Part shown: positions 39,166 to 45,746 of the stretch, one piece after another
Layout: each line of letters begins with the position of its first letter
Numbering within the stretch: position 1 is the stretch's first letter
Source of the DNA: Saccharothrix carnea
GTDB lineage: Bacteria; Actinomycetota; Actinomycetes; Mycobacteriales; Pseudonocardiaceae
Assembly (NCBI RefSeq): GCF_003014735.1
Contig: NZ_PYAX01000002.1
Span: 620,001 to 684,000, forward strand
Direction: 5' to 3'
DNA length: 64,000 nucleotides
Position numbers and translations under genes: made by a program
Notes under the pieces: model-generated
Told to the model about the DNA's origin: nothing
Databases searched by the model: none
The model's input: only the letters and a program-made list of their open reading frames with translations

Positions 39166-39592
39166 GCGGCCCATCCTTTCCCACGAGGTGACCCGCCGGT
39201 TACCCCTTTCGATCACCGCCGGAACGCCGACCTCGGCCGGGCACGAACCGGCCGGCGCGACCCCGCGAAGCCCTCGTCCCGCGCGGCCCCGGCCATCACC
39301 CAATGGAACGAATACAACACGTATGGCAATTCCGCCACGCCCGATGAGCGGATCCGTCCATCCAGGACGGCAGGTAATTCCAGCGCAACTCGAATCAGTA
39401 GTCATGTGCGCAAGAGTGAAGATGGCACTTCGCAAAAACCGGGGTGATGATGATTCAAGGGGTGGGTGAACGTCGCAACAGGTTCCGATAGTCACAGACC
39501 AGTGGTGTGTCGCTTTCCACCCTTCTGGACGGTAGCGCCGGCCGGTGCCGGCCCCTGTCTACCGACGTCCACCAAGAAACGAGGAGTCACCG
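39166..39592. other. Long promoter region upstream of the five-gene cassette
   Basis: 427 bases without a gene. The left half is GC-rich; around 39290-39480 the sequence is unusually AT-rich for this chromosome. A GCCGG-rich inverted stretch lies near 39535-39556, close to the ribosome site of the first cassette gene. It likely contains the main cassette promoter, but I could not assign a clear -35/-10 pair. Confidence 0.45.
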
Positions 39593-40069
39593 ATGACCAG
39601 TACGGCACCGAGCGTCGTCGATCGCGAGGCGATGCTCAATTCATACTACGGTCCGTTCACCAGCGAACAGGAGAAGGAAGTCCTCGGCGTCCCACTGCGC
39701 CTCGTCGGCGCCTGGGCGAAGAACGACGCCGCCGGCGTCGCGAACACCTTCACCGAGGACGGCATCCTGATCCTTCCGGGTGACGTGCTGAAGAAGGGCC
39801 GCGAGGAGATCCACGCCTTCATGAGCGAGGCCTACTCGGGCCCCTTCAAGGGCACCGGCGTCACCGGCAACCCGGTCGACGTCCGCTTCGTCTCCGACGA
39901 CGTCGCGCTGCTGCGCACGCACGGCGGCATCCTGGCCCCCGGCGAGACCGACATCGCGCCCGAGCGCGCCGTGCGGTCCACGTGGGTCTGCGTGAAGCAG
40001 GACGGTGAGTGGCGACTCGCGGGCTACCAGAACAGCCCTCGGGGCGACGGCGCGACCCTGCGCTGGTAA
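39593..40069 (+). CDS. SnoaL/NTF2-like protein (SgcJ/EcaC type), first of a tandem pair
   Basis: 158 aa. NTF2-like cone fold: EVLGVPLRLVGAWAKNDAAG, VANTFTEDGILILPGDVLKKG, a long strand region, and RSTWVCVKQDGEWRLAGYQN as the closing strands. SgcJ/EcaC-type members are small pocket proteins found in natural-product and catabolic clusters. ATG 39593 has ACGAGGAG upstream. First gene of the five-gene cassette. Clear paralogue of the next gene (shared YY..FT, PERxVRxTWV). Function unknown. Confidence 0.82.
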   Translation: MTSTAPSVVDREAMLNSYYGPFTSEQEKEVLGVPLRLVGAWAKNDAAGVANTFTEDGILILPGDVLKKGREEIHAFMSEAYSGPFKGTGVTGNPVDVRFVSDDVALLRTHGGILAPGETDIAPERAVRSTWVCVKQDGEWRLAGYQNSPRGDGATLRW

Positions 40070-40106
40070 TCGGCCGCTAGCCACACAGAACCAAGGAGTG
40101 CCAGAC

Positions 40107-40589
40107 ATGCCCACAGCGACCAACGGGTGGGGCGACGCCTCACAGCTCCTCGCCGAAGCCGGGGTCCCCGAAGACCCCACCTACTACCGGGGCTTCACCG
40201 CCGACGACGAGAAGGCGGTGCTGACCGTCCCCATGCGCATCCAGGAGGCGTGGGAGCGCAACGACGCCGACATGTTCGCCGACACCTTCGCCGACAACGG
40301 CAGCCTGCTGATGCAGGACACCCAGCTCACCAGCCGCGAGGACATCCGCCGGTACATGGCGGAAGGCTTCCGCGGCGGCCTCAGGGGAGCCCGGGTCCGC
40401 GGCGGACCACTGGAGATCAACTTCCTCACCGACACCGCCGCGATCGTGATCAGCGAAGGCGGCATCCAGCTCGCGGACGAGTCGGCCACCGCGCCGGAGC
40501 GCAAGGTCCGCGTCACCTGGGTGATCGCCAAGCAGGCCGACGGCACGCTGAAGCTGATCTCCCACCACAGCAGCCCCATCAAGGGCTGA
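40107..40589 (+). CDS. SnoaL/NTF2-like protein, second of a tandem pair
   Basis: 160 aa. Same fold and order as the previous protein: YYRGFTADDEKAVLTVPMRI, AWERNDADMFADTFADNGSL, then PERKVRVTWVIAKQADGTLK. The N-terminus has about 20 extra residues. Identity between the pair is roughly a third by eye, so the duplication is old and the two may form a heteromer or have different ligands. ATG 40107 follows AAGGAG. 37 bases separate the genes; the peroxiredoxin starts 24 bases later. Confidence 0.82.
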   Translation: MPTATNGWGDASQLLAEAGVPEDPTYYRGFTADDEKAVLTVPMRIQEAWERNDADMFADTFADNGSLLMQDTQLTSREDIRRYMAEGFRGGLRGARVRGGPLEINFLTDTAAIVISEGGIQLADESATAPERKVRVTWVIAKQADGTLKLISHHSSPIKG

Positions 40590-40613
40590 GGCCCACACGA
40601 CGAGAGGACTGCC

Positions 40614-41081
40614 ATGGCGGTCGAGGTCGGATCCCCGGCGCCGGACTTCACCCTGAGCGACCACAACCGCGAGGTGGTGACGGCGTCGTCGCTGTGGCGG
40701 GAGAAGAACCTGCTCGTGATCTTCTACCCGTTCGCGTTCAGCACGATCTGCCAGGACGAGATGTGCCTGGTCAGGGATGACATCGGCGAGTACGCCACCA
40801 ACGACGTGCAGGTCGTCGGCGTCTCCACCGACACGCCGTTCGCGCTCAAGGCCTGGGCCGAGCAGCAGGGGTACGACTTCCCCCTGCTGTCGGACTTCTG
40901 GCCCCACGGCGAGGTCGCCGGGAAGTACGGCGTCTTCCTCGAAGAAGCCGGGATCGCGATGCGCGGCACGTTCCTGGTGGACACCTCCGGTGTGGTGCGC
41001 TTCGCGGAGATCAACGGTCCCCGCGAAGCACGCGACCAGACCAAGTGGAAGAAGGCGGTGGCGGAACTGACCGCCGCCTGA
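40614..41081 (+). CDS. AhpE-like 1-Cys peroxiredoxin
   Basis: 155 aa. Reduces hydrogen peroxide and organic peroxides through a peroxidatic Cys. The active site is PFAFSTIC with Pro39, Ser43 and Cys46, matching the PxxxS/TxxC rule and the AhpE subfamily. A second Cys at 51 is close by and may change the mechanism. FYPFAFST and GTFLVDTSGVVRFAE complete the thioredoxin fold. ATG 40614 follows GAGAGGA. Placed directly ahead of a GMC oxidoreductase gene, it could scavenge peroxide made by that enzyme. Confidence 0.9.
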   Translation: MAVEVGSPAPDFTLSDHNREVVTASSLWREKNLLVIFYPFAFSTICQDEMCLVRDDIGEYATNDVQVVGVSTDTPFALKAWAEQQGYDFPLLSDFWPHGEVAGKYGVFLEEAGIAMRGTFLVDTSGVVRFAEINGPREARDQTKWKKAVAELTAA

Positions 41082-41476
41082 ATCCGTCACCGAAACCGTC
41101 GCGGGTTCCGGCACGAACGGTGATCCGGACGACGGCCATCCATTTGCCGCACAATCCGAAATGTGGCGCGTCCCTCGGATCGCGTTCTCCACGTCGGACG
41201 CGATCCGCGATGTCGAGACGCGTTATCGCGGTGAACCTGTGGTGATCCCGCCCGGCCTGACGGGAACGATTTCCGGATGGGCAACCACATCGGTGATCGC
41301 CCTGTCGGGCCGGGCGGGAACACAGCGGGAACACTCACCGCGACAGCCCTTTCCCAACGCACGAGAACGTCGTTCTGCCGGTCCGGCGTGAACCCGACCG
41401 AGCTTCCCGGAAAAACCGCGCCTGGACGGCGCACGCACACCCGAATCCGCCGTACGGCGGACGTGAGGAGGACCGG
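41082..41476. other. Intergenic region inside the cassette
   Basis: 395 bases between the peroxiredoxin and GMC genes, the only long gap in the cassette. No gene supported; a plus-strand frame from 41161 has no start signal. A perfect 14-bp palindrome CCGCCGTACGGCGG (41447-41460) lies just before the GMC ribosome site (GTGAGGAGG), so the last two genes may have their own regulated promoter. Confidence 0.5.
41447..41460. promoter_or_regulatory. 14-bp palindrome before the GMC gene
   Basis: CCGCCGTACGGCGG, fully symmetrical, 16 bases before ATG 41477. Candidate operator or leader hairpin controlling the GMC/aminotransferase pair. Confidence 0.4.
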
Positions 41477-43054
41477 ATGTACGATTACGTGATTGTCGGA
41501 GCGGGCTCGGCGGGCTGCGTGCTGGCGGCGCGACTCACCGAAGACCCCGATGTCACCGTGTGCCTGATCGAGGCCGGGCCCACCGACGACCTGGAGACCA
41601 TCCACATCCCCGTCGCGTTCGGCGACCTCTTCCGCACCTCGGTCGACTGGGACTACGACTCGCACGACGAGCCCCAGCTCGACCGGCGGCGGATCTTCCT
41701 GCCCCGCGGCAAGGTCCTCGGCGGCACCAGCTCGATCAACGCGATGCTGTACCTGCGCGGCAACAAGCTCGACTACGACGGCTGGGGCCAGCCCGGCTGG
41801 AGCTACGACGAGCTGCTGCCGTACTTCAAGCGCTCCGAGGACAACGAGCGCGGCGAGTCGTACTACCACGGCGCCGGCGGCCCCATGAGCGTGTCGGAAG
41901 GGCGCAGCCGGAACACGCAGTCGCAGGCGTTCCTGGACGCGGCGGCACAGGCCGGGTTCGCGTCCAACGACGACTTCAACGGCGAGTCCCAGGACGGCTT
42001 CGGCCACTTCCAGCTCACCCAGCGCAACGGCCGCAGGTGCTCGACCGCGGTCGCCTACCTGCACCCGGCCATGAACCGGCCGAACCTGACCGTGCGGACG
42101 AACTTCCAGGTGCACCGCATCGTCATCGAGAACGGCCGCGCGGTGGGCGTCACCGGACGCCGGTTCGACGAGAACCTCACCGTCCGCGCGAACCGCGAGG
42201 TGATCCTGTCGGCCGGCGCCTACAACTCGCCGTACCTGCTCATGCACTCCGGCATCGGCCCCGCCGACCACCTCGGTCAGCTCGGCATCCCGGTCGTCCA
42301 CGCCAACGACCGGGTCGGCGCCAACCTCCAGGACCACCCGCTGGTACCGCTGATCTTCGCCCACGACGAGCCGGTCAGCACCCTGATCGCCGACGACCCC
42401 CGGTACGTCAGGCAGTTCGAGGAGGAGGGCACCGGCCCGATGACCTCCAACGGCCCCGAAGCCGGCGGCTACGTGCGCACCCGCTCCGGGCTGGCCGCTC
42501 CGGACGCGGTGTTCTTCTCCGGCCCGATGATGTTCGCCGACAGCGGCCTGGGCCTGCCCACCGGGCACGCCATCACCTACGGGCCGGTGCTGCTGACGCA
42601 ACAGGCCCGGGGCACCGTGACGCTGGACTCCGCCAACCCCACCATGAAGCCCAAGATCCAGCACAACTACCACCAGACCGAGGACGACCTGGCCACGGCC
42701 GTGGCGGCGACGCGGATCGGGATGGAGATCGCGCGGCAGAAGGCGCTGTCCCGGTTCACCAAGGACTGGTACTCCGCCCCGGAATCGGACTCCGAGGCCG
42801 ACGTGCGCGCCTACGTCCGCGGCTACACGCACTCCATCTTCCACGGCTCGGGCACCTGCGCGATCGGCCAGGTCGTCGACGCCGAGCTGAAGGTGATCGG
42901 CATCGACGGCCTACGCGTGGCCGACGTGTCGGTCATGCCGACGCTCGGTCGCGGCGCACCCAACGCGTCCGCCATCGCGATCGGGGAGAAAGCCGCGGAC
43001 CTCGTGCTGGGCAAGGCGCCGCTGCCGGCGGCCCAGGCCTTGGCCACCGCGTGA
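41477..43054 (+). CDS. GMC family FAD-dependent oxidoreductase
   Basis: 525 aa. Oxidises an alcohol to an aldehyde or ketone. The FAD Rossmann motif VGAGSAGCVLAARL is at 7-20, the GMC signature 1 region GKVLGGTSSINAMLYLRG near 77-94, signature 2 GAYNSPYLLMHSGIGP, and the catalytic HGSGTCAIG and NASAIAIGEKAADLVL at the C-terminus. It resembles choline-dehydrogenase-like and aryl-alcohol oxidase-like enzymes; no signal peptide, so cytoplasmic. ATG 41477 has GTGAGGAGG. Followed after 35 bases by the aminotransferase, its likely partner. Confidence 0.93.
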   Translation: MYDYVIVGAGSAGCVLAARLTEDPDVTVCLIEAGPTDDLETIHIPVAFGDLFRTSVDWDYDSHDEPQLDRRRIFLPRGKVLGGTSSINAMLYLRGNKLDYDGWGQPGWSYDELLPYFKRSEDNERGESYYHGAGGPMSVSEGRSRNTQSQAFLDAAAQAGFASNDDFNGESQDGFGHFQLTQRNGRRCSTAVAYLHPAMNRPNLTVRTNFQVHRIVIENGRAVGVTGRRFDENLTVRANREVILSAGAYNSPYLLMHSGIGPADHLGQLGIPVVHANDRVGANLQDHPLVPLIFAHDEPVSTLIADDPRYVRQFEEEGTGPMTSNGPEAGGYVRTRSGLAAPDAVFFSGPMMFADSGLGLPTGHAITYGPVLLTQQARGTVTLDSANPTMKPKIQHNYHQTEDDLATAVAATRIGMEIARQKALSRFTKDWYSAPESDSEADVRAYVRGYTHSIFHGSGTCAIGQVVDAELKVIGIDGLRVADVSVMPTLGRGAPNASAIAIGEKAADLVLGKAPLPAAQALATA

Positions 43055-43089
43055 GCAGGCCGTCCACCGACGTGATCCCAGGAGGAACG

Positions 43090-44469
43090 TTGACCATCAC
43101 CCACGAGCCCACGACGTCGTCCGAGGTGGCGACCGAACTGGAAGACCTCGACCGCAGACACCTGTTCCGCTCCATGCAGCGCGGCGACATCACCGACCGG
43201 GTGGTCATCGTCCGCGGGCAGGGCTGCACCGTGTGGGACGCCAGGGGCAACGAGCTGCTCGACGCCGCCGGCGGTGGCGTGTGGCACTCGCCCCTGGGCC
43301 ACGGCCGCCGCGAACTCGGCGAGGTCGCCGCCCGGCAGATCGGCGAACTGGAGTACTTCACCAGCCTGCTGGAGTTCACCAACGACAAGGCGATCAGGCT
43401 CGCGTCCCGCATCGCGAACCTGGCGCCGGACGGCCTGAACCGCGTGTTCTTCACCAGCGGCGGCTCGGAGGCGGTGGAGACGGCGATCAAGGCCGCGCGG
43501 CTCTACCACCACCGGCGCGGCGACACCGACCGCACCTGGGTCATCTCGCGGAACTACTCGTTCCACGGGACCGCCTACGGCAGCGGCACGCTCACCGGCT
43601 TCCCGCCCGTGCACCTGGGCGTGGGACCGAACCTGCCCCACGTCGAGCGGGTCTCGCCGCCTTACCCCTATCGGGCGGCGGACCTCTACGGCGGCCGGGA
43701 CACCACCGACTTCCTGATCGACGAGCTGGAGCAGACCATCCGGCGTCTCGGCCCGGGCAACGTGGCCGCGATGATCGGCGAGCCGGTGATGGCGGCCGGC
43801 GGCGTGCTCGAACCGCCCGCCGACTACTGGCCGCGGGTGCGGGAACTGCTGACCCGGCACGGCATCCTGCTGATCGCCGACGAGGTGGTCACCGGCTACG
43901 GGCGCATCGGGTCGTGGTTCGACTCGCCGGGGCGTGGCATGGGAGCCGACATGATCACGTTGGCCAAGGGCATCGCCGGCGGGTACATGCCGCTGGGCGC
44001 GACGATCATGTCGGACGAGGTGTCGCAGACGCTGCTGGACACCGGCGGCTTCTTCCACGGCTACACGTTCCAGGGCCACCCGGTGGCCTGCGCGGTGGGT
44101 CTGGCGACGATCGACATCATCGAGCGGGAGAACCTGCTGTCGAAGGCCGACCTGATCGCCGAGTGGTGCCGCACCGGCCTGGCGCCGGTGGTCGACCTGC
44201 CCGCGGTCGGCGACCTGCGGGTCGTGGGGTCGCTCGCGGCCGTCGAGCTCGTGGCGGACCGCACCACCCGCGAGCCGATGGCGTGGGGGCCGGTGGAGCA
44301 GGTGGCCTTCGAGATCCGCAAGCGCCACGGCGTCATCGCCCGCCCCTACGGTCCGATGCTGGTCCTGGCGCCGCCGCTGGTGATCAGCCAGGCCGAGACG
44401 GCGCGCGCGACCTCCGCCGTGGTCGACGTGCTGGCCAAGCTCCGCCCGGACGGCACGATCGCCGCGTGA
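43090..44469 (+). CDS. Class III PLP-dependent aminotransferase
   Basis: 459 aa fold type I omega-aminotransferase. FFTSGGSEAVETAIKAARLY binds the cofactor phosphate, LLIADEVVTGYGRIGSWF holds the PLP Asp, and ITLAKGIAGGYMPLGATIMS the Schiff-base Lys. The branch includes taurine-pyruvate and beta-alanine-pyruvate aminotransferases, which convert terminal aldehydes or ketones to amines. The TTG 43090 start lies 3 bases after GGAGGAA. It ends the cassette and is followed by the hairpin at 44486-44536. Substrate unknown; together with the GMC enzyme it could turn an alcohol into an amine, or run the reverse. Confidence 0.92.
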   Translation: MTITHEPTTSSEVATELEDLDRRHLFRSMQRGDITDRVVIVRGQGCTVWDARGNELLDAAGGGVWHSPLGHGRRELGEVAARQIGELEYFTSLLEFTNDKAIRLASRIANLAPDGLNRVFFTSGGSEAVETAIKAARLYHHRRGDTDRTWVISRNYSFHGTAYGSGTLTGFPPVHLGVGPNLPHVERVSPPYPYRAADLYGGRDTTDFLIDELEQTIRRLGPGNVAAMIGEPVMAAGGVLEPPADYWPRVRELLTRHGILLIADEVVTGYGRIGSWFDSPGRGMGADMITLAKGIAGGYMPLGATIMSDEVSQTLLDTGGFFHGYTFQGHPVACAVGLATIDIIERENLLSKADLIAEWCRTGLAPVVDLPAVGDLRVVGSLAAVELVADRTTREPMAWGPVEQVAFEIRKRHGVIARPYGPMLVLAPPLVISQAETARATSAVVDVLAKLRPDGTIAA

Positions 44470-44485: not shown

Positions 44486-44536
44486 TCCCTGTGCTTGCTT
44501 CCGATAAGTGAACCTTATCGGAAGCAAGCACAGGGA
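44486..44536. terminator. 23-bp perfect-stem hairpin after the cassette
   Basis: Perfect inverted repeat with a TGAAC loop; arms begin TCCCTGTGCTTGCTTCCGAT on the left. Unlike most hairpins here it is A/T-rich in the inner half. Starts 17 bases after the aminotransferase stop, with no T-tract. Its length and perfection make it the most conspicuous secondary structure in the window. Confidence 0.75.
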
Positions 44537-44600: not shown

Positions 44601-45746
44601 GTGACGACGGCTGAGACCTCCGCGTTGACCTGCAACTACCCCGGCTGCGCGCGTCCGGTGTTCCGGGGCAGTGGGCCGGGGCGCCCGGCGGAGTACTGCG
44701 ACCTGCCGGAACACACCCGGTGGCGGGCGTGGCGGGAGAGGCAGCGGTTGGCGCAGGCGGCGGAGGCGGAGCAGGAGATCGTCACCGTGACGAAAGGCCC
44801 GCAGGGAATCACCGCGGGCAAGATCAGGGCCGAAGAACTGCTGGAGCGGTTCCGGGTGCTGACCGAGCAGATGTCGACCACGCTGACCGGAGCCGTGGCG
44901 GAGCTGTCGGCGATCGCCGATCCGAGCGTGGCCGAGAGCCAGGTGCAGGCGGTCGAAGCCGAGGCAGCGCGGCGGGTCGCCGAGGCGGAGGCCGCGGTCG
45001 CGAAGGCGGAACGGCGCAGGCGTGACGCCGAACAGGCACGACAGGCCGCCGAGGCGACCACCGAGGACGCGGTCCGTGCCGCCGAACAAGCCGAACGCGA
45101 CGCCGAGGCCGCCTACGCGCAACGTGACGCCGCCCGGGCCGAAGCCGACGCGGCCGTCGAACGGGCCGAGCAGGAGATCGCCGCCATCCGCGTGGAAGCC
45201 GCAGCCGCCGTGGACGAGATCCGCCGGGACGCCCAAGCCCAGGTCGAGCAGGCCAAGGCCGACGCGGTCGCCCACGCCGAACAGGCCAGGCGGCAGGCGG
45301 TGCGGGAAGTCGACCAGGTCCGCGCGGACGCCCAGGCACAGATCGACCAGGCCCGGCACGACGCACAGGCGCAGGTCGACCGCGCCCGAGCCGAAGCGCA
45401 AGCCCGGGTCGACCGGGCCGTCGCCGAGGCCGAGGCGAGCGTCGAGCAGGCCCGGTCCGCCGCCCGAGCCGAAGCCGACGCGGCGAACCAGGCCCGGATC
45501 AAGGCCGAACGCGCCGAGCAATCCGCCCACGACGCCCGCGTCGAACTCGACCGCGCCCGAGCCGAGCTGACCGACCAGCGCGACACCCACCGCGCCCAGC
45601 TCGACCAAGCCGAACGCGCCGCCCGCGAACGCCTCGACGCCCTGGAACAAGCCCGCACCCAGACCCTCGTCCGCGCCGAACGGGCCGAGAGCCAACTCGA
45701 CCGGCTGCAAGCCGAACTGGACGCCCTGCGAGCCGAACGCGCGTGA
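44601..45746 (+). CDS. Long coiled-coil protein with Cys/His N-terminal motif
   Basis: 381 aa. Residues 10-45 hold a small Cys/His-containing module (CNYPGCARPVF, then EYCDLPEHTRWRAWRERQRL) that looks metal-binding. From about 50 to the end the protein is one very long Ala/Glu/Arg/Gln coiled coil with heptads such as AQVDRARAEAQARVDRAVAE repeated many times. No signal peptide or membrane segment. It recalls KfrA-type plasmid proteins and actinobacterial polar scaffold proteins, but neither match is firm. Own leaderless promoter; convergent with the FAD monooxygenase gene. Confidence 0.7.
   Translation: MTTAETSALTCNYPGCARPVFRGSGPGRPAEYCDLPEHTRWRAWRERQRLAQAAEAEQEIVTVTKGPQGITAGKIRAEELLERFRVLTEQMSTTLTGAVAELSAIADPSVAESQVQAVEAEAARRVAEAEAAVAKAERRRRDAEQARQAAEATTEDAVRAAEQAERDAEAAYAQRDAARAEADAAVERAEQEIAAIRVEAAAAVDEIRRDAQAQVEQAKADAVAHAEQARRQAVREVDQVRADAQAQIDQARHDAQAQVDRARAEAQARVDRAVAEAEASVEQARSAARAEADAANQARIKAERAEQSAHDARVELDRARAELTDQRDTHRAQLDQAERAARERLDALEQARTQTLVRAERAESQLDRLQAELDALRAERA

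What the first reader, a model, noticed from the sequence alone, without database searches (positions are those of the whole stretch)
39593..44469. Five-gene alcohol-to-amine-like cassette with two tandem NTF2-like proteins
Two tandem NTF2-like paralogues, an AhpE-like peroxiredoxin, a GMC oxidoreductase and a class III aminotransferase lie on one strand, closed by a long hairpin. GMC enzymes make an aldehyde or ketone and often H2O2; the peroxiredoxin could remove the peroxide, and the aminotransferase could aminate the carbonyl. The NTF2-like pair could bind or isomerise the intermediate. No regulator, transporter or ligase is included. I know of no described pathway with exactly this set.
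Basis: partly seen in the sequence, partly recalled or inferred. Interest (0 to 1): 0.6.

Follow-up and report, generated by a model that had tools for sequence, protein, structure and literature searches.

The report
Detached enediyne tailoring gene cassette
Five neighbouring genes in an actinobacterium look like a cut-off piece of the machinery that decorates enediynes, a family of DNA-breaking antitumour compounds, and two of them probably put an amine on such a molecule.

Summary
The five genes are real and as described: two SgcJ-type NTF2-like proteins, an AhpE-type peroxiredoxin, a GMC oxidoreductase and a class III aminotransferase (AT), then a perfect 23-bp hairpin. Their meaning lies outside the window. 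The NTF2 proteins match crystallised SgcJ of enediyne biosynthesis. The AT belongs to a clade whose 33 searched genomes all carry an enediyne-type polyketide synthase (PKSE), against 1 of 15 other searched genomes; GMC lies within 5 kb of the AT in 25 of those 33 loci and in 0 of 46 others. The window's genome holds a PKSE/SgcE10-type locus and a second GMC/AT/SgcJ/epoxide-hydrolase/UnbV locus on other contigs, at least about 280 kb away. Saccharothrix luteola has the cassette at the same site with four further enediyne-type genes; the five genes kept here are under purifying selection. The closest clustered relative is Salinispora pacifica, whose enediyne clusters are mostly of the nitrile-bearing cyanosporaside type. 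Best reading: a reduced enediyne tailoring island detached from its PKSE, in which GMC oxidises an alcohol and the AT aminates the carbonyl, possibly toward a nitrile. Substrates and product are unproven.

The parts
39593..40069 (+). NTF2a, SgcJ-type NTF2-like protein (158 aa)
   Evidence: TIGR02246 121.0 bits; PDB SgcJ 4i4k 148.6 bits; 95% identical in S. luteola, dN/dS 0.11
40107..40589 (+). NTF2b, second SgcJ-type NTF2-like protein (160 aa)
   Evidence: TIGR02246 74.2 bits; PDB SgcJ 4ovm 85.0 bits; relatives at 58-61% in 4 of 200 family genomes besides its own, next to an NTF2a relative in all four
40614..41081 (+). AhpE-type peroxiredoxin with CxxxxC (155 aa)
   Evidence: Rv2238c 167 bits; 93% in S. 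luteola; in no other locus mapped
41082..41476 (.). 395-base gap; in S. luteola two genes, divergent NTF2c and flavoprotein FADx, lie here; only the last ~60-100 bases (from 41374 or 41415) align to S. luteola
41477..43054 (+). GMC oxidoreductase (525 aa), enediyne-cluster clade
   Evidence: PF00732/PF05199; 64% to own C9 copy; tree
43090..44469 (+). class III (omega-type) aminotransferase (459 aa), TTG start
   Evidence: PF00202 280.5 bits; tree; Lys in AKG and conserved Arg in RPYG (their roles are recalled)
44486..44536 (+). perfect 23-bp hairpin ending the block; a matching inverted stretch is in S. luteola
39230..39497 (.). junction: about 270 bases stand where S. luteola has 12.8 kb, including epoxide hydrolase, acyl-CoA-dehydrogenase-like flavoprotein and MFS transporter
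   Evidence: blastn of the whole window with G200:C15, gene list

Best explanation
The cassette is a reduced tailoring island of a nine-membered-type enediyne pathway, physically separated from the enediyne polyketide synthase locus. SgcJ-type NTF2 proteins assist processing of the enediyne polyene or core; the GMC flavoenzyme oxidises an alcohol on the core or its side chain to an aldehyde or ketone; the omega-type aminotransferase converts that carbonyl to an amine; the peroxiredoxin removes peroxide if the GMC enzyme or another flavoenzyme makes it. In some relatives the amine may be oxidised further to a nitrile, as the link to cyanosporaside-type clusters suggests. Shown: family membership, clade, co-occurrence, linkage, missing genes relative to S. 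luteola, purifying selection, dispersal in the assembly. Inferred: substrates, order of steps, working together with the loci on contigs C9 and C11. My estimates: enediyne tailoring 0.85; GMC then AT on one substrate 0.5; nitrile as end product 0.2.
For: SgcJ match. Own genome: PKS at C11 beside a thioesterase matching SgcE10 4i4j (243 bits), CalE7 and DynE7, with an acyltransferase domain matching DynE8; locus C9 with GMC 64%, AT 58%, NTF2 56%, epoxide hydrolase, UnbV, MFS. PKSE in 33 of 33 searched genomes of the AT clade versus 1 of 15 others. GMC within 5 kb of AT in 25 of 33 clade loci and 0 of 46 others; epoxide hydrolase 14 of 33 and 0 of 46; FADx 14 of 33 and 0 of 46; PKSE, UnbV or thioesterase inside the held stretch 9 of 33 and 0 of 46. 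Congruent trees and Mantel r 0.91. S. pacifica CNR114 has NTF2a, an NTF2b-like gene, AT 72% and GMC 72% on the PKSE contig, about 14 kb from the PKSE. S. luteola has the fuller island at the same site. dN/dS 0.11-0.31, as in four flanking genes 0.13-0.32.
Against: No product, expression or enzyme data. The own genome has a second GMC/AT pair on C9, so the cassette may be redundant. Eight other genomes of the genus carry the PKSE but no AT at E<=1e-100, so the AT is not needed for the core. PKSE is common in the family (70 of 200 genomes), so co-occurrence alone is weaker inside the family (5 of 5 genomes with AT at 55% or more; Fisher p 0.005). Eight of 33 clade loci show no GMC within 5 kb. 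No shared promoter motif was found among the three loci. The peroxiredoxin was seen with the set only in Saccharothrix.
Confidence: 0.6

Rival explanations
1. Decaying leftover: the island was lost piecemeal after the C9 locus took over, and the five genes no longer contribute.
For: At least four genes that adjoin the cassette in S. luteola are missing here; C9 holds relatives of GMC, AT and NTF2.
Against: All five ORFs intact; dN/dS 0.11-0.31, the same range as flanking genes, although a very recent loss of function would not show. Cassette AT and GMC belong to a different subclade from the C9 copies, so they are not recent duplicates.
Confidence: 0.15
2. GMC and AT are enediyne tailoring enzymes but act on different parts, for example GMC on the core and AT on a peripheral moiety.
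For: Eight of 33 clade loci have no GMC within 5 kb of AT; in L101 and L119 the held stretch begins within 0.5 kb of AT and in L118 it ends 1.8 kb after it, leaving five without that excuse.
Against: 25 of 33 loci pair them against 0 of 46 others; GMC and AT distances correlate strongly.
Confidence: 0.2
3. Self-protection module: SgcJ-like proteins bind the reactive compound, peroxiredoxin and GMC handle oxidants.
For: Two NTF2-like proteins and a peroxiredoxin sit together; sequestering proteins are known in other enediyne producers (recalled).
Against: An aminotransferase does not fit; SgcJ is reported as required for C-1027 biosynthesis (PMC8488855, passage).
Confidence: 0.07
4. The first reader's stand-alone alcohol-to-amine pathway, unrelated to enediynes.
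For: By ORF inspection I saw no PKS or transporter directly beside the cassette in the window.
Against: SgcJ identity, clade-wide PKSE co-occurrence and enediyne-type genes beside the cassette in S. luteola.
Confidence: 0.08

Closest known systems
Enediyne cluster of Salinispora pacifica CNR114 (most likely cyanosporaside-type)
   Same: NTF2a 71%, an NTF2b-like gene, AT 72%, GMC 72% in one block with epoxide hydrolase, UnbU/UnbV, PKSE and thioesterase on one contig
   Different: No peroxiredoxin or FADx mapped; order is NTF2a-NTF2b-AT-GMC; cluster in one place. That it is the cyanosporaside type rests on a paper saying 20 of 23 S. pacifica strains carry that cluster (PMC8609351, passages), not on a test of this strain
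SgcJ of enediyne biosynthesis (PDB 4i4k, 4ovm)
   Same: Direct sequence match over nearly the whole NTF2 domain
   Different: Here two tandem copies, with a third in S. luteola, away from the PKSE
Own-genome C9 locus and Saccharothrix deserti cluster
   Same: GMC, AT, SgcJ-type NTF2, epoxide hydrolase, FADx
   Different: Different AT and GMC subclade; no tandem NTF2 pair mapped; in S. deserti all on the PKSE contig
Borrelidin nitrile genes borI/borK/borJ (recalled)
   Same: Works like: oxidation, transamination by an aminotransferase, further oxidation to nitrile
   Different: P450 and dehydrogenase rather than GMC; modular macrolide PKS. No sequence comparison was made

Membership tests
SgcJ/EcaC NTF2-like family (TIGR02246) | Score above curated cut-off | tested here: met
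   121.0 and 74.2 bits against 33.95
Enediyne biosynthetic cluster, nine-membered type | Enediyne PKS with ACP-polyene thioesterase in the cluster | tested here: not met
   The two whole-genome PKSE matches above 700 bits are on C11 and C29, not in the window. So the cassette alone is not an enediyne cluster
Enediyne biosynthetic cluster, nine-membered type | SgcJ homologue | tested here: met
Enediyne biosynthetic cluster, nine-membered type | Epoxide hydrolase and UnbV/UnbU with the set | tested here: inconclusive
   Not beside the cassette here; epoxide hydrolase adjoins it in S. luteola; both on own C9
Enediyne biosynthetic cluster, nine-membered type | Enediyne product | not testable with these tools
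   no metabolite data
Class III (omega) aminotransferase | Aminotran_3 domain and PLP lysine | tested here: met
   280.5 bits; AKG, or SKG in G161, in all 47 tree rows; role of the Lys recalled
GMC oxidoreductase | N and C domains and catalytic His | tested here: met
   residue roles recalled
AhpE peroxiredoxin | Closest to Rv2238c, its Cys kept | tested here: met
   167 bits

The most novel reading that the evidence does not exclude
One enediyne pathway is run from three loci far apart on the chromosome (PKSE/thioesterase, core-maturation genes, and this cassette), with two divergent GMC-AT pairs that give the same strain alternative aminated (or nitrile) enediyne products; GMC-AT then marks an unexplored group of nitrogen-tailored nine-membered enediynes in dozens of actinobacteria.
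Probability: 0.3. Interest if true: 0.68.

Novelty: new variant of a known kind. Interest (0 to 1): 0.5.

Why it matters
Few nine-membered enediynes are known (a 2023 paper counts five intact and four cycloaromatised; PMC10381858, passage), and a 2024 paper says nitrile genes of cyanosporaside are only proposed (PMC11611611, passage). A conserved GMC-AT pair whose clade tracks PKSE in 33 of 33 searched genomes gives a concrete, testable enzyme pair for putting nitrogen on an enediyne scaffold, and cassettes detached from the PKSE would be missed by mining that looks only around the PKS.

Tried and rejected
Generic alcohol-to-amine pathway: set low once NTF2a/b matched SgcJ and related loci carried PKSE. 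Recent duplication of the C9 genes: rejected by AT and GMC trees. Shared promoter motif among C2, C9 and C11: 14-mers with up to 2 mismatches hit at most 3 of 15 regions, as in the reversed control (summed hits 102 against 77); not supported. Promoter/terminator scan uninformative. The location of UnbV in S. luteola is not settled: the search failed, and the stretches mapped (60 kb of C3, 120 kb of C15, 95 kb of C8) did not show it. One search was meant for Salinispora, but the genus drawn is evidently wider; 2 of 31 genomes there have the AT at 55% or more. No structure prediction was run.

Literature, ten searches: no held paper combined enediyne, biosynthetic gene cluster, GMC and aminotransferase; two searches found none; for only the 15 listed rows were seen. 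Papers were seen as passages only: PMC11611611, PMC10381858, PMC5181780, PMC8609351, PMC8488855, PMC3469384, PMC6426641. The cyanosporaside cluster paper and the pentaene polyol paper are not held, so whether they already describe this GMC-AT pair could not be checked.

Full report
OBSERVATION. The window is G000:C2:620001-684000 of an 8.9-Mb, 40-contig genome. Pfam and NCBIfam give SnoaL/DUF4440 with TIGR02246 SgcJ/EcaC for both NTF2-like proteins, AhpC-TSA, GMC and Aminotran_3.

WHAT THE NTF2 PAIR IS. Against the PDB sequences both proteins hit SgcJ first (4i4k and 4ovm: 148.6 and 141.1 bits for NTF2a; 83.8 and 85.0 for NTF2b). SgcJ is described as required for biosynthesis of the enediyne C-1027 (PMC8488855, passage). 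In 200 family genomes NTF2b has relatives at 58-61% identity in four besides its own, each next to an NTF2a relative (69-79%) and, in the stretch read, a third, more distant NTF2 gene.

OWN GENOME. Copies of NTF2 (56%), GMC (64%) and AT (58%) lie together on contig C9. With them are an epoxide hydrolase that matches solved bacterial epoxide hydrolases 5f4z and 4i19 at 592 and 513 bits, a DHA2-type MFS transporter, an AhpD-core protein and a large GMC protein related to cholesterol oxidase, and a protein with the UnbV_ASPIC domain. Neighbours I name by inspection or recall only: an AraC-type regulator, a UnbU-like membrane protein (no Pfam or NCBIfam hit) and a flavoprotein, FADx (no Pfam hit at 1e-5 for the C9 fragment; its S. 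luteola relative matches PF01494). Contig C11 carries an iterative-type PKS whose acyltransferase domain matches DynE8 (176.8 bits over 400 residues; many other PKSs match its ketosynthase part, and score higher overall) and beside it a thioesterase matching SgcE10 4i4j (243 bits), CalE7 (214) and DynE7 (139). I call this PKS the PKSE; no reference PKSE was aligned, so the label rests on these matches and the neighbours. A second PKSE-like gene (49% over the query) is on C29, with a UnbV-type gene by inspection.

DISPERSAL. The cassette is at 660-664 kb of an 890-kb contig, the PKSE at 54-60 kb of a 223-kb contig, the C9 locus at 235-256 kb of a 419-kb contig. Even if contig ends were adjacent, cassette and PKSE would be about 280 kb apart and cassette and C9 about 390 kb. 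Misassembly cannot be excluded for C9 and C11, but an independent S. luteola assembly is largely collinear with the window and also has its PKSE (92%) on another contig than the cassette.

AT CLADE AND PKSE. One scan of a collection of 84,980 species genomes with an alignment of six ATs returned 80 loci, the best of 144 relatives. In a tree of 47 ATs a branch with 100/99 support separates 38 rows, including both own-genome ATs, from 9 others. All 33 genomes of that clade that were searched through handles carry the PKSE (E<=1e-120). Of the 15 other searched genomes 1 does (L141's genome); 7 of these 15 ATs are in the tree outside the clade and 8 (44-48% identity) were not placed in it. Fifty of the 80 loci were asked; L134 is not held and L099 and L100 are one genome, so 48 genomes were searched. 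Binned by identity instead, it is 30 of 30 at 55% or more and 4 of 18 below. Related genomes are not independent, and PKSE is common in the family: 70 of 200. There, the five genomes with AT at 55% or more all have PKSE. Eight other PKSE-bearing genomes of the genus lack the AT at E<=1e-100, so AT is a tailoring gene, not a core gene.

LINKAGE. By tblastn over all 80 loci (L100 left out as a copy of L099), within 5 kb of AT: GMC in 25 of 33 clade loci and 0 of 46 others; epoxide hydrolase 14 of 33 and 0 of 46; FADx 14 of 33 and 0 of 46; any of PKSE, UnbV or thioesterase anywhere in the held stretch 9 of 33 and 0 of 46. Of the 8 clade loci without GMC, three are cut by contig ends near AT. The peroxiredoxin was mapped only in S. 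luteola, and within 5 kb of AT in none (in S. luteola it is just over 5 kb away). GMC and AT distance matrices over 29 loci correlate at r 0.91 (0 of 5000 permutations reach it; G157, a duplicate of L132, dropped). In both trees the window proteins group with S. luteola, Amycolatopsis kentuckyensis, Salinispora pacifica and Catellatospora (AT also with Streptomyces sp. FH025, whose contig is cut before GMC), 100/100, apart from the C9 copies, which pair with S. deserti. The cassette is therefore not a recent copy of C9.

CLOSEST CLUSTERED RELATIVE. In S. pacifica CNR114 NTF2a (71%), an NTF2b-like gene (43%), AT (72%) and GMC (72%) are one block, with another NTF2b relative (54%) on the other strand; the PKSE, thioesterase, UnbU/UnbV, large GMC and epoxide hydrolase are on the same 302,390-base contig, PKSE about 14 kb from AT. 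Of 23 S. pacifica strains 20 are reported to carry an enediyne cluster linked to cyanosporaside and 3 a shortened sporolide cluster (PMC8609351, passages). Cyanosporasides are cyano compounds (title in the reference list of PMC10381858); a 2024 paper says their nitrile genes are only proposed (PMC11611611, passage). Among the genes of this stretch that I scanned with Pfam (10 proteins) or mapped the AT is the only aminotransferase I saw; but the contig ends there and not every ORF was scanned. The nitrile route (alcohol, aldehyde, amine, nitrile) is modelled on borrelidin, from recall only.

A REDUCED ISLAND. S. luteola contig C15 aligns with window 13654-39229 and 39498-64000 at 84-95% identity, largely collinear (one segment, window 33.5-35.1 kb, is displaced locally). 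Where the window has about 270 bases (39230-39497) S. luteola has 12.8 kb, and between the peroxiredoxin and GMC it has two further genes. The extra genes next to the cassette are an acyl-CoA-dehydrogenase-like flavoprotein, an EHN epoxide hydrolase (65% to the C9 copy), a divergent NTF2c and FADx; relatives of each sit in other enediyne-type loci. The rest of the 12.8 kb (MFS transporter, and by inspection a DUF899-type, an aldehyde dehydrogenase and xanthine-dehydrogenase-type genes) may be unrelated. Loss in the window lineage is more economical than gain for the enediyne-type genes, but no outgroup for the site was available. Comparison of the two species gives dN/dS 0.11, 0.31, 0.18, 0.17, 0.25 for the five genes and 0.13, 0.32, 0.14, 0.18 for four flanking genes: no relaxed selection is visible. 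A putative enediyne cluster has been reported before in the genus, in S. espanaensis (PMC3469384, passages).

MECHANISM. Shown: enzyme families, conserved motifs, clade, co-occurrence, linkage, constraint. Inferred: GMC oxidises an enediyne-derived alcohol; AT, which keeps the PLP lysine and an Arg at the place where omega-aminotransferases bind the amino-acid cosubstrate (roles recalled), aminates it; SgcJ-type proteins assist an early core step; peroxiredoxin protects against peroxide. Substrates, order and cooperation with C9 and C11 are untested.

VERDICT. A real and interpretable feature: a new variant (detached, reduced, with tandem SgcJ genes) of a known kind (enediyne tailoring genes). 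Whether the GMC-AT pair is already described for cyanosporaside could not be read here.

Noticed in passing
41446-41461: Perfect 16-bp palindrome TCCGCCGTACGGCGGA just before the GMC ribosome-binding site; partly kept in S. luteola. Could be an operator; seen by eye in the outputs.
   Followed up: partly
GMC 41477-43054: The residue after the presumed catalytic His (xHxxGTC motif) is Gly here, in S. luteola and in A. kentuckyensis, Ala in 3 and Pro in 16 of the 22 rows where the motif pattern matched (9 of 31 rows did not match it); NAPT/NAPV is NASA or NATA in the same three. A subclade signature that may mean another substrate.
   Followed up: partly
L074 (G000:C29:37791-43868): A second, divergent enediyne-type PKS with UnbV-type and P450-type genes (by inspection) in the same genome.
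   Followed up: no
L099/L100, G200:C3 and C15 (S. luteola): The first 60 kb of one scaffold matches another at 99.5-100% identity, including the cassette: a large repeat, chromosome-end repeat or assembly artefact.
   Followed up: partly
L052, G000:C9:208197-209132: A thioredoxin-like gene (by inspection) next to a second AhpE-like peroxiredoxin (58% to the cassette one), outside the enediyne locus.
   Followed up: no
44601-45746: Long Ala/Glu/Arg-rich, coiled-coil-looking protein right after the hairpin, conserved in S. luteola (92%, dN/dS 0.13).
   Followed up: no
L131, L159: AT relatives (47-48%) in two Rhizobium species; the L131 genome has no PKSE hit, so this AT lineage probably has another role outside enediynes.
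   Followed up: no
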